A DNA stretch of 64,000 nt from Acidobacteriota bacterium (GTDB lineage: Bacteria > Acidobacteriota > Blastocatellia > RBC074). Positions 2,478-63,289 of the stretch are shown here, one piece after another. Every line of letters starts with the position of its first letter. Within the stretch, counting starts at the first letter, position 1. The notes beneath the pieces were generated by a model that saw nothing but the letters and a program-made list of their open reading frames with translations, made no database searches and had not been told where the DNA came from. The position numbers and the translations under genes were made by a program. The stretch is taken from assembly GCA_016196035.1 (NCBI GenBank), contig JACPYM010000064.1, forward strand, positions 62,001-126,000, written 5' to 3'.

Positions 2478-2656
2478 TAGACCGGTTTGCAATTGCGTTT
2501 ACGGGAGCGCGTTGGGCGGGGACAGTACCGCGCGCGTGAGCAAGCGGAGCCTGGGCGGTTCAGCCAACGGCATAAACTCGACGCGCCGCTTGCTCACGCG
2601 CGCGGTACCGTCCCGCTGCGCAACTTTTCCCATCCACCGATGTGAAAACCGATCTA
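2478..2656. repeat. Compound palindromic element, copy A (TA-flanked, MITE-like)
   Basis: 179 bp. Outer ends are TAGACCGGTTTGC (from 2478) and GTGAAAACCGATCTA (to 2656), so the element reads TA-GAnCGGTTT...AAACCGATC-TA. Inside is a long hairpin with arms 2518-2547 and 2586-2614 (word GGTACCGCGCGCGTGAGCAA) that differ at one base. The same inner hairpin occurs at 26182-26272, 26849-27095, 31915-32010 and 63169-63264. The right end overlaps the hsdM stop codon, which is the CTA at 2654-2656 on the plus strand. TA at both ends resembles the target duplication of IS630/Tc1-type MITEs; this is inference. Confidence 0.8.
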
Positions 2657-4099: not shown

Positions 4100-4222
4100 C
4101 TGGGTACGCAGCGCTTCCAGCGTGCGGTCTCGGCAGCAGACTAACGAATGCCGGAGGGGTTTGCCTGCCGGTTCGATTCCGTCTGCTGCCGAGACCGCAC
4201 GCTGGAAGCGCTGCGTACCCAG
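4100..4222. repeat. Perfect 42-bp inverted repeat between hsdR and hsdM
   Basis: Arms 4100-4141 and 4181-4222 are perfect reverse complements around a 39-nt spacer; the word GTACGCAGCGCTTCCAGC is typical. It ends 1 bp before the last base of the hsdR stop codon. When transcribed it would form a very stable stem and may partly uncouple hsdM from hsdR. No T-tract follows, so it is probably a mobile-type repeat rather than an evolved terminator. Confidence 0.9.
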
Positions 4223-8665: not shown

Positions 8666-8747
8666 GCAAAAGAGCATGGAGTTCAGGCTTCAGCCTGTGT
8701 CGAAAATCTCGAACACAGGCTGAAGCCTGAACTCCATGCTCTTTTGC
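8666..8747. repeat. Perfect 35-bp inverted repeat, terminator-like
   Basis: Arms 8666-8700 and 8713-8747 are perfect complements around a 12-nt loop; the word GGAGTTCAGGCTTCAGCCTG is typical of repeat families in such genomes. The ends carry AAAA/TTTT, so on either strand the stem is followed by a short T-run. It lies between convergent genes and could terminate both. Confidence 0.85.
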
Positions 8748-23618: not shown

Positions 23619-23621
23619 AAG

Positions 23622-23702
23622 TACAGCAACCTTTCCAGGTTGCTGTGGGCTTCCGCTAAGAGCAACCAGCGAGGAACCCAACAACCTGGAAAGGTTGCTG
23701 TA
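23622..23702. repeat. Perfect 21-bp inverted repeat after lepB
   Basis: Arms 23622-23642 (TACAGCAACCTTTCCAGGTT...) and 23682-23702 are exact complements with a 39-nt spacer. It occupies most of the gap between lepB and the next plus-strand gene. It is another member of the palindrome-rich intergenic class; no T-tract follows. Confidence 0.85.
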
Positions 23703-23767
23703 CCGTGTTGCGCTCTTCTCATTTGATTGCGCCGCTTTCCAAAGTACCTCAAGCGGGCTTGTTTGCA

Positions 23768-25093: not shown

Positions 25094-26176
25094 ATGTCTC
25101 AACTCAACAACCCGCACGACAAATTTTTCAAAGCCACCTTTGGACGGCCTGAAGTCGCGGCTGAGGTGCTCGCGCATTACCTGCCCGCCGCAACGGCGGC
25201 GGCGCTGGAATTGCGCGCACCCGCATTGGTCAAAGACTCGTTCGTGGATGACGAGTTGCAGGAACATTACTCCGACCTGCTTTACCGCGTGCGGCTCAAA
25301 CGCGGCGGCGCGGCTTATGTCTATTTGCTCTTCGAGCACAAGAGCGCACCGGATGAACTGGTCGCCTTTCAAGTGCTGCGTTACAAAGTGCGGATTTGGG
25401 AACGGTTGGCGCGCGCCAAGCCACGCAAGCTGCCGCTGATCGTGCCGCTCGTGTTTTACCACGGGCGCAAACGTTGGCGCGTCCCGCGCAGTTTCGGCGC
25501 GCTGTTGGAAGGCGGCGAACTCGCCGGGCTGCGCCAATACGTGGACGAATCGGAATATCTGCTGCTCGACCTCTCAGCCTTCAGCGCGGCGGAGCTGGTC
25601 GGCGCGGCGTTCACCCGCGTCGCCTTGCTGGTGTTGAAATACGCTTTTGAAGACCAGTTGCTCGCGCGGCTGCCAGAGATCGTGCGGCTCTTGCCCATCT
25701 GGGAGCAGAGTGCGTTAGAATACTTTGCCACCGTGCTCCGCTACGTTTCGGAGATCACGCGCCCCTTGACCAGACACGAATTTGAGGAACTGAAAACAGC
25801 GTTCCCCACAGAAACCGGAGAGATTATGGAAACAATGGCTTCCGCTTGGGTCAAAGAAGGTTTGCAAAAGGGCCGGCAAGAAGGCTTGCAACAAGGCCGG
25901 CAAGAAGGTCGGCAGGAAGGCCGGCAGGAAGGCCGGCAGGAAGGTCGGCAAGAAGGTTGGCAGGAGGGCTTGCAACAAGGCCGGCAAGAGGCGGCGCTCA
26001 CCTTCACGTTGCGTTTACTGGAACATCAAATCGGCGCGGTGGGCGCGCGCACGGCCGCGCGTTTGCGCAAGCTTTCCTTTGAGCAACTGATGGAACTCGG
26101 CGAGGCGCTGCTGGAATTCAAGTCGGCCAAAGACCTGTCCGCCTGGCTACGGGCGAAGGCGGAAAAAACTGCGTGA
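25094..26176 (+). CDS. Rpn-family recombination-promoting nuclease/putative transposase
   Basis: 360 residues. The N-terminus H-D-K-F-F-K-A-T-F-G is the Rpn/YhgA (transposase_31) hallmark. PD-(D/E)xK nuclease residues are seen in H-Y-S-D-L-L-Y and L-F-E-H-K-S. A flexible G-R-Q-E-G repeat region (about 260-299) joins it to a C-terminal DUF4351-like helical domain (L-L-E-H-Q-I-G-A-V). E. coli RpnA-type proteins are DNA endonucleases linked to RecA-independent recombination; recent work links them to phage defence. It sits directly beside a palindrome of the RAYT family, at the border of the accessory region. Confidence 0.88.
   Translation: MSQLNNPHDKFFKATFGRPEVAAEVLAHYLPAATAAALELRAPALVKDSFVDDELQEHYSDLLYRVRLKRGGAAYVYLLFEHKSAPDELVAFQVLRYKVRIWERLARAKPRKLPLIVPLVFYHGRKRWRVPRSFGALLEGGELAGLRQYVDESEYLLLDLSAFSAAELVGAAFTRVALLVLKYAFEDQLLARLPEIVRLLPIWEQSALEYFATVLRYVSEITRPLTRHEFEELKTAFPTETGEIMETMASAWVKEGLQKGRQEGLQQGRQEGRQEGRQEGRQEGRQEGWQEGLQQGRQEAALTFTLRLLEHQIGAVGARTAARLRKLSFEQLMELGEALLEFKSAKDLSAWLRAKAEKTA
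25870..25989 (+). repeat. 12-bp tandem repeat coding for G-R-Q-E / G-x-Q-x
   Basis: About ten units of the type GGCCGGCAAGAA (Gly-Arg-Gln-Glu) run through the linker of the Rpn-like gene. Unit length is a multiple of three, so copy-number change would keep the frame and alter linker length. This is common in Rpn proteins. Confidence 0.85.
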
Positions 26177-26181
26177 TCCTT

Positions 26182-26272
26182 GCGGTACCGCGCGCGTGAG
26201 CAAGCGGCACCTGCATCATTGAACCAATGTGCCGTACTTGACGAACCGCTTGCTGACGCGCGCGGTACCGTT
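26182..26272. repeat. RAYT-family palindrome, copy B (downstream of the RAYT gene)
   Basis: Arms 26182-26207 and 26246-26272 (word GGTACCGCGCGCGTGAGCAA) pair with one central mismatch (GAGC vs GACG side). It lies 6 bp past the stop of the tyrosine transposase gene and 5 bp past the end of the Rpn-like gene. It lacks the outer TA-flanked ends found in copies A and E. Confidence 0.85.
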
Positions 26273-26278
26273 CCGGCA

Positions 26279-26818
26279 TCAGTCTTCTTCTTTTTCCCAC
26301 GCGGCAAAATTCGGCAACTCATCGCCCTGGCAATTGAGCACGTAGTCTATGGCGCAAGCCAAGCTGTGTGGCGTCCAGAGCCAGCGGGTGCTGCCGTGGC
26401 GCGACCACGGTTTTTGATCGGGCGGCAACACACCGGCCTCGCGCATGCGCCGAGTGGCGTAGGCTTTCAGGTCGTTCATCGCGTCTTCAGGTTCGCGGCC
26501 TGCCGTGATTACGCTGTGGACGTGATTGGTGCGCACATTGAGCGCGTGCAACAACCACTGGCGCTGCTGGCAGACTTCGCGCACCGTCTGCTCAACCACC
26601 GTGCGACGTGCCGTGTCGAGCGTCACCGGCGCGCGGTTAAGCCGCTGGAACTCTTCGTATTCACGCAACTCATCGTGGGAAAGAAAGGGCGTGCCGTAGC
26701 GATTGTGCGACCGGTCTACTGACCCGCGCGCATCACCGTGCAGCCAGGTGCCATAACAACGGAAGGAGATAAAGTAGGCCAAGGGCCGAGCAGCTTCGTC
26801 AAACTCACGTTTGGGCAT
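26279..26818 (-). CDS. REP-associated tyrosine transposase (RAYT, Y1_Tnp/IS200-like)
   Basis: 179 residues from ATG 26818, which has GGGAGGTC 5-12 nt upstream; longer in-frame starts run into the palindrome. Domain Y1_Tnp: an HUH metal site H-V-H in the context T-N-H-V-H-S-V, and the probable catalytic tyrosine in A-I-D-Y-V-L-N-C-Q. The N-terminus Y-F-I-S-F-R-C-Y-G-T-W-L-H-G matches the family. RAYTs are single-copy, domesticated relatives of IS200/IS605 transposases that act on palindromic REP sequences as single-stranded DNA. The gene is flanked on both sides by the same long palindrome (26182-26272 and 26849-27095), as expected for a RAYT with its cognate REPs. It appears intact. Confidence 0.88.
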   Translation of the reverse strand: MPKREFDEAARPLAYFISFRCYGTWLHGDARGSVDRSHNRYGTPFLSHDELREYEEFQRLNRAPVTLDTARRTVVEQTVREVCQQRQWLLHALNVRTNHVHSVITAGREPEDAMNDLKAYATRRMREAGVLPPDQKPWSRHGSTRWLWTPHSLACAIDYVLNCQGDELPNFAAWEKEED

Positions 26819-26848
26819 GTATGACCTCCCTGCAAAGCGGGACAGCGC

Positions 26849-27095
26849 GGGGACGGTACCGCGCGAGGACGGTACCGCGCACGTGAGCAAGCGGCCTCTG
26901 ACAAGCAAACCCACTGGCCGCAAGCCGGGCCAACAGCGGCGCCATCAAATCACACCTACTGGCCGACGGCCAAGCCTCAGCAGTAGCCCTATCACTCCAC
27001 TCGCAGGTGGAGCAGGCCAATCACCCTCACTATCTGAGTAGCCAAGGTGCCGCTTGCTGACGCGCGCGGTACCGTCCCCGCGCGGTACCGTCCCC
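26849..27095. repeat. RAYT-family palindrome, copy C (upstream of the RAYT gene), with duplicated arm ends
   Basis: Left arm 26849-26894 and right arm 27050-27095 pair over about 46 bp with few mismatches. Each arm carries the unit GGGGACGGTACCGCGCG twice in tandem or near-tandem. The 155-bp centre is longer than in other copies (about 38-46 bp). It lies 30 bp upstream of the RAYT start and ends exactly where the avd-like fragment ends. The RAYT promoter may lie inside it. Confidence 0.85.
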
Positions 27096-30642: not shown

Positions 30643-30820
30643 AGCCCTGAAAGGGCATAATTCAATAGCCGTGGGCAACGCCCACGGCGTGAGCAGCGGC
30701 CATTCCCGGCCCTGACAGGGCCGCATTTGAAAGCAGATTCGACCCCTTCAGGGTCGTGAACTCCTACGCGCCGTTCCGTGGGCGTGGCCCACGGCTATTG
30801 AATTACGCCCTTTCAGGGTT
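30643..30820. repeat. 178-bp inverted repeat with nested hairpins upstream of the FGE-fold gene
   Basis: Arms 30643-30687 and 30776-30820 pair over about 45 bp with a few mismatches (words CCTGAAAGGGC, TTCAATAGCCGTGGGC). Inside are further stems, for example CGGCCCTGACAGGGCCG at 30708-30724. It separates the MoxR gene from the FGE-fold gene and overlaps the doubtful upstream start of the latter. Nothing else is seen in the 269-bp gap. Confidence 0.8.
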
Positions 30821-31872: not shown

Positions 31873-32010
31873 TAGAGCCGTTTGCAATGGCGTTTACGAG
31901 AGTCAGTTGACGCCGGGACAGTACCGCGCGCGTGAGCAAGCGGCGCGTCAAGCTACCCGCATTGGCTGAATTGCCAAGGTGCCGCTTGCTCACGCGCGCG
32001 GTACTGTCCC
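31873..32010. repeat. RAYT-family palindrome, copy D (left outer end only)
   Basis: Starts with TAGAGCCGTTTGCAATGGCG (from 31873), the outer end shared with copies A and E. Then come inner arms 31915-31943 and 31982-32010, which are perfect complements. The right outer end is missing: the element stops 7 bp from the TIR gene stop codon. It occupies almost the whole gap between the TIR and MoxR genes, so it is transcribed within the operon. Confidence 0.85.
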
Positions 32011-63135: not shown

Positions 63136-63289
63136 TAGAGCGGGTTGCAGTTGCGTTTACGGGACGCCGGGGCGGTACCGCGCGCGTGAGCAAGCGGAGA
63201 CTATGCCGCTGCACTAATCCGTCCTACGTGACGCGCCGCTTGCTCACGCGCGCGGTACCGTCCCATACACCGTAGTGAAAACCGATCTA
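63136..63289. repeat. Compound palindromic element, copy E (TA-flanked, MITE-like)
   Basis: 154 bp. It begins TAGAGCGGGTTGC (63136) and ends GTGAAAACCGATCTA (63289). The inner hairpin arms are 63169-63197 and 63236-63264, differing by one or two bases. Its last three bases (CTA) are the complement of the TAG stop codon of the TPR gene. It fills the gap between that gene and the thioesterase and leaves only about 36 bp for the thioesterase promoter. Confidence 0.85.

What the first reader, a model, noticed from the sequence alone, without database searches (positions are those of the whole stretch)
26182..27095. RAYT transposase bracketed by its probable cognate palindromes
The Y1_Tnp gene has copy B 6 bp after its stop and copy C 30 bp before its start, both with the GGTACCGCGCGCG hairpin word. 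Three more copies occur within 61 kb. RAYTs are usually tied to REP/REPIN sequences of 20-60 bp; hairpins with arms of 26-46 bp and (in some copies) TA-flanked outer ends are much longer than the well-studied enterobacterial and Pseudomonas forms.
Basis: partly seen in the sequence, partly recalled or inferred. Interest (0 to 1): 0.75.

Follow-up and report, generated by a model that had tools for sequence, protein, structure and literature searches.

The report
RAYT hairpins that ride inside MITEs
The window holds a "class 3" REP-associated transposase gene bracketed by its own palindromic repeats (a known kind of REP/REPIN system), and in this genome more than half of the sampled dispersed copies sit inside a second, unrelated kind of small transposon, which probably explains why the repeat is so abundant here.

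Summary
A 179-aa HUH transposase (26279-26818, -) is bracketed by two inverted-repeat elements built from GTACCGCGCGCGTNAGCAAGCGG, with three more copies in the window and 687 half-sites genome-wide. The "very long hairpin" is an ordinary REPIN: two inverted 20-nt REPs around a ~38-nt spacer (~84 bp). The protein matches class 3 TnpA_REP of Quentin et al. 2018.

Comparison with 80 homologs gave a simple rule: class 3 genes are bracketed by inverted REPs made of a CNG(A/T)R foot plus an 8-GNNA-8 hairpin, with positions 5-6 usually mismatched. REP sequence tracks protein sequence, and the second class 3 gene of this genome has its own, different REP.

The unexpected part: 29 of 49 sampled REPINs, including three of the five in the window but not the two bracketing the RAYT, carry IS630-type ends and form the core of a ~180-bp MITE (TA ends, TAGATCGGTTTTCA inverted repeats). 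Relatives carry MITEs with these ends around other hairpins, and one has a 1-kb IS630 element with the same ends. REPIN abundance here therefore probably reflects hitchhiking on a MITE as well as any RAYT activity. Mobility was not tested experimentally.

The parts
26279..26818 (-). Class 3 TnpA_REP/RAYT gene (P0001, 179 aa; NHVH 98-101, catalytic Tyr159, Y....Q motif YVLNCQ)
26183..26270 (.). REPIN B just past the RAYT stop: REPs 26185-26207 (+) and 26246-26268 (-), 38-nt spacer; no IS630-type ends
26849..27095 (.). Compound REPIN C upstream of the RAYT start: REPs 26872-26894 (+) and 27050-27072 (-), doubled outer foot GGGGACGGTACCGCGCG, 155-nt spacer; no IS630-type ends
   Evidence: (L045 coordinates + 24781)
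2478..2656 (.). REPIN-bearing IS630-type MITE, 179 bp, both TIRs and TA ends; REPIN core 2525-2608
31873..32004 (.). REPIN 31921-32004 with one IS630-type TIR starting at 31873; the other end is not recognisable
63136..63289 (.). Short REPIN-bearing IS630-type MITE, 154 bp, both TIRs; REPIN core 63175-63258

Best explanation
The finding is a REPtron: a class 3 HUH (Y1) transposase gene bracketed by inverted copies of its own REP. By analogy with E. coli TnpA_REP, the protein would bind single-stranded REP (5' CNGTA foot plus a 20-nt hairpin with a GNNA loop and two mismatched positions) and cut and rejoin it. A pair of inverted REPs with a short spacer, the REPIN, would be the smallest mobile unit. 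Shown here: the bracket, the structural rule, the REP-protein covariation and the dispersal. Inferred: binding, cleavage and mobility. In this genome's lineage a REPIN became the core of an IS630-type MITE and the composite multiplied to roughly a hundred copies or more (inferred). The dispersed population is therefore a mixture of free REPINs and MITE-borne REPINs that probably moved with an IS630 transposase. The only related IS630 gene found here is broken.
For: HUH and Tyr residues are invariant in 46 homologs; the model matches RAYT 4er8 and IS200/IS605 transposases. REPs bracket 52 of 73 homologs on both sides, the outermost copies inverted relative to each other. Of foot+GNNA words within 400 bp, 62% are fully paired, against 5.8% at 1-2.5 kb; positions 5-6 stay at background. 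REP and protein distances correlate: Mantel r 0.47, 0 of 5000 permutations. The second class 3 gene, L048, has a different REP. 41 of 43 REPINs are intergenic, against 14% expected. MITE: 22 of 49 REPINs have both TIRs and 7 have one; 158 exact TIR+REP joins here and 0 in ten relatives; a 1019-bp IS630 with these ends in G010; REPIN-less 96-bp copies.
Against: G008 and G010 carry the REP without a detectable class 3 RAYT. The RAYT has a single copy, so there is no sign that the REPtron itself moves. No orthologous empty site was found. The REPIN-less MITEs could be plain palindrome deletions (4-bp GCGG microhomology in L219). The IS630 relative here is frameshifted and has lost a catalytic Asp.
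Confidence: 0.82

Rival explanations
1. All the hairpins were spread by the RAYT alone; the IS630-type ends are only a favoured target, so REPINs inserted repeatedly into pre-existing MITEs.
For: Free REPINs exist and REPIN-less 96-bp MITEs exist. MITEs with these ends in relatives carry other hairpin cores.
Against: The REPIN sits at a near-constant distance (about 46-50 bp) from both TA ends in most copies. MITE-borne spacers resemble each other more (66% identity) than free ones do (44%; shuffled about 26%), as expected of one captured copy that multiplied. No full REPIN-less pair of ends appeared in the first 439 kb sampled.
Confidence: 0.13
2. The hairpins are unrelated to the neighbouring transposase and bracket it by chance.
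For: Some relatives have the hairpin but no such gene found.
Against: Of 14 Y1_Tnp loci in the genome only this class 3 gene is bracketed by this word. The same arrangement recurs in 52 of 73 homologs with covarying sequence.
Confidence: 0.03
3. The gene with its two outer REPs is an ordinary IS200-like insertion sequence, and REPINs are miniature deletion derivatives of that IS.
For: Fold matches to IS608 and ISDra2 are as good as to the RAYT. The outermost REPs are inverted, like element ends.
Against: One gene copy per REP type in this genome against hundreds of REPs fits a REPtron better. Class 3 is described as resembling both IS and REPtrons (PMC6006769), so the distinction is partly one of naming.
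Confidence: 0.2

Closest known systems
Class 3 TnpA_Y1/TnpA_REP (Quentin et al. 2018, PMC6006769)
   Same: NHVH motif, Y....Q motif, Acidobacteria/Planctomycetes, flanking atypical hairpins, CnGA-like foot in most homologs, high genomic copy number (about 600 in Solibacter usitatus).
   Different: The window's own foot is CGGTA/CAGTA (CnGT). A uniform 8-GNNA-8 rule and REP-protein covariation are shown here; the paper reports hairpins found by manual inspection.
REPINs (Bertels and Rainey 2011, PMC3116915)
   Same: Inverted REP doublets, intergenic, arms far more conserved than the spacer, constant spacing.
   Different: Foot is not GTAG; many copies lie inside an IS630-type MITE.
TIRYT/TIRtron of Acidobacteria (Di Nocera et al. 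2013, PMC3733652)
   Same: Tyrosine transposase genes flanked by inverted repeats, some of which form dispersed families, in Acidobacteria.
IS630-family MITEs (TA target)
   Same: Short, no gene, TIRs of about 25-30 bp, TA at both ends, autonomous DDE_3 partner with the same ends in a relative.
   Different: The core is a REPIN that belongs to an unrelated HUH transposase system.

Membership tests
Class 3 TnpA_REP / RAYT | HUH motif and single catalytic tyrosine in a Y1 fold | tested here: met
   H99, H101, Y159 invariant in 46 proteins; AF2 mean pLDDT 82, top Foldseek hit 4er8
Class 3 TnpA_REP / RAYT | Class 3 signature NHVH and Y....Q | tested here: met
   NHVH and YVLNCQ in P0001; signature from PMC6006769
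Class 3 TnpA_REP / RAYT | Placement by tree or HMM with published class 3 sequences | not tested
   Published reference sequences were not at hand
Class 3 TnpA_REP / RAYT | Flanking hairpins with a CnGA foot | tested here: inconclusive
   Homologs: CAGAA, CCGAG and CGGAA are common; the window gene has CGGTA/CAGTA (CnGT)
Canonical GTAG RAYT (NCBIfam NF047646) | Score over the curated cut-off and GTAG foot | tested here: not met
   25.5 bits against a cut-off of 80; foot is not GTAG
REPIN | Two inverted REPs, conserved spacing, hairpin, dispersed in intergenic DNA | tested here: met
   49 pairs, 43 of 49 spacers 37-39 nt; 41 of 43 intergenic; ssDNA fold z-score -9.8
REPIN | Mobilised by the cognate RAYT | not testable with these tools
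   Needs biochemistry or strain comparison
IS630-type MITE | TIRs with TA ends, no gene, autonomous DDE_3 partner with the same ends | tested here: met
   (the partner is in relative G010)
IS630-type MITE | TA target duplication shown by an empty site | tested here: inconclusive
   TA flanks every complete copy, but no orthologous empty site was found

The most novel reading that the evidence does not exclude
A composite of two unrelated transposition systems: a REPIN of a single-strand HUH transposase became the core of a double-strand IS630-type MITE, so one small element can in principle be moved or pruned by either enzyme. More generally, this MITE family may be a carrier that picks up different hairpin cores in different species.
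Probability: 0.6. Interest if true: 0.6.

Novelty: new variant of a known kind. Interest (0 to 1): 0.5.

Why it matters
REPIN copy number is normally read as a measure of RAYT activity and of long-term REPIN-host coexistence. Here a large share of the copies ride on a different transposon, so copy number alone can mislead. The comparison also turns class 3 REPs, so far identified by manual inspection, into a simple searchable rule (CNG(A/T)R foot plus 8-GNNA-8 hairpin) with a specific REP per transposase, which makes recognition-specificity swaps testable.

Tried and rejected
Looking for an orthologous empty site in G003, G006, G009 and G010 with two 19-kb queries gave no clean junction. 'Hairpin arms are unusually long' was rejected: it is the REPIN plus the inner arms of the MITE. 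Chance association with the gene was rejected. Pairing of outer flank positions -1, -3 and -4 across copies is above shuffle, but the copies are related, so it is not claimed as compensatory evolution. The hairpin search requires pairing, so the rule was judged only by features not selected for (foot, positions 5-6, near/far contrast). The PDB sequence search gave only weak IS200 matches.

Full report
Observation. In the 9.6-Mb genome there are 687 half-sites with up to 3 mismatches and 181 exact inverted pairs, with no hits for the reversed control pattern. The gene between copies B and C is 26279-26818 (-), 179 aa, Y1_Tnp. It is below the NCBIfam cut-off for canonical REP transposases, 25.5 against 80 bits.

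What the hairpin is. Each half is a 20-nt hairpin CCGCGCGC-GTGA-GCAAGCGG behind a GTA foot, as predicted by folding. Two inverted halves with a spacer make an ~84-bp REPIN, with spacers of 37-39 nt in 43 of 49 sampled copies. The arms are nearly invariant (90 of 98 arms have no mismatch) while 38-nt spacers average 57% identity, as described for REPINs (PMC3116915). The variable base of the loop agrees between the two arms in 40 of 49 copies here and in 17 of 20 in relatives. 41 of 43 copies are intergenic by a simple codon-usage gene caller; a random 84-bp stretch would be intergenic about 14% of the time.

The transposase. P0001 has NHVH and YVLNCQ, the signature given for class 3 TnpA_Y1. 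246 relatives were found in one-per-species genomes, and the best 80, mostly Acidobacteriota and Planctomycetota, were fetched. An AlphaFold2 model (mean pLDDT 82) matches 4er8, the E. coli RAYT-REP complex, first by Foldseek, and IS200/IS605 transposases at Z about 12 (4er8 at Z 9.0).

Family-wide rule. A scan of the homolog flanks for 8-GNNA-8 hairpins gave 3.4 per kb within 400 bp and 0.26 per kb at 1-2.5 kb; CNNT and ANNG controls stayed at 0.1-0.25. Without asking for pairing, foot+GNNA words near the gene are fully paired at positions 1-4 and 7-8 in 62% of cases, against 5.8% far away, while positions 5-6 remain at background. Those positions are mostly GA/GA, CT/GG or GC/AA; CT/GG includes a T-G wobble and a C-G pair, so a mismatch is common but not universal. 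61 of 73 homologs with enough flank have a REP and 52 have one on both sides, with the outermost copies inverted. REP and protein distances correlate (Mantel r 0.47, 0 of 5000 permutations), and nearest protein neighbours share a near-identical REP in 51 of 71 cases, against 11% of random pairs. In this genome the second class 3 gene (L048) is bracketed by another REP, ACGGGGAGCGTNAGCGACCTG, itself dispersed (85 hits). Of the 14 Y1_Tnp loci only the class 3 gene in the window carries the reported word within its locus.

Presence and absence. G003 (same genus, 73% complete) has neither palindrome nor class 3 gene. G006 has a 59% homolog with its own REP and 26 half-sites of this one. G009 has a 45% homolog with the HUH motif changed to NRAH. 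G008 and G010 have 139 and 53 half-sites and no class 3 gene found. Loss of the gene with persistence of the repeats is the simplest reading, but assembly gaps are possible, above all for G008.

The larger element. Extending the copies showed that many lie in the centre of a longer unit with ends TAGA(T/G)CGGTTT(T/G)CA. Of 49 copies, 22 have both ends, 7 have one and 20 have none; random 70-mers almost never match. In the window, 2478-2656 and 63136-63289 are complete, 31873-32004 keeps one end, and the two copies bracketing the RAYT have none. Genome-wide there are 321 such ends within 3 mismatches and 158 exact end+REP joins, with none of these joins in ten relatives. Two 96-bp copies lack exactly 84 bp relative to the 180-bp form; L219 has 4-bp GCGG microhomology at the junction and keeps the right foot, while L220 differs in its inner arms. 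Relatives have MITEs with these ends around other hairpins. G010 has a 1019-bp element with the same ends encoding HTH_23 and DDE_3 domains, that is an IS630-type transposase. The only IS630 relative found in this genome (C117) is frameshifted with DET changed to AET.

Interpretation. A class 3 REPtron is the likely source of the REPIN family (inferred from the family-wide linkage). A REPIN then became the core of an IS630-type MITE and spread with it (inferred from constant geometry, related spacers and restriction to this genome). The spacer of RAYT-bracketing copy B is distantly related to those of the MITE-borne copies (score 12.5 against a shuffled 95% level of 7.0), which ties the two populations together. 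No transposition, binding or cleavage was tested, and no orthologous empty site was found.

Known versus new. Class 3 genes with high-copy hairpins were described in 2018, and REPINs in 2011. The held literature gave no report of REPINs as cores of IS630-type MITEs, but only open-licence papers were searched, so novelty of that point is provisional.

Noticed in passing
window 25094-26176 (+): Rpn/YhgA-like putative transposase gene (Transposase_31 + DUF4351) with a repetitive Q-E-G-R stretch, convergent with the RAYT; copy B fills the gap between them.
   Followed up: no
window 4100-4222, 779-880, 8666-8747, 23621-23703, 30645-30818: Other long near-perfect inverted repeats with short spacers, unrelated in sequence to the REPIN; possibly other MITE or hairpin families.
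   Followed up: no
L192, L194, L200, L201, L213, L218, L197, L210, L215: MITE-like copies in relatives with the same IS630-type ends but different hairpin cores (e.g. CCACGGGGAACA..., GCGGATTACTAATCCGC), as if the ends were a general carrier.
   Followed up: partly
L047 (G009): Class 3 homolog whose HUH motif reads NRAH instead of NHVH, suggesting an inactive gene.
   Followed up: no
L170:9324-9602 and L234:8760-9063: Two own-genome MITE copies contain 4 and 5 REP half-sites (279 and 304 bp), i.e. tandem or nested REPs.
   Followed up: no
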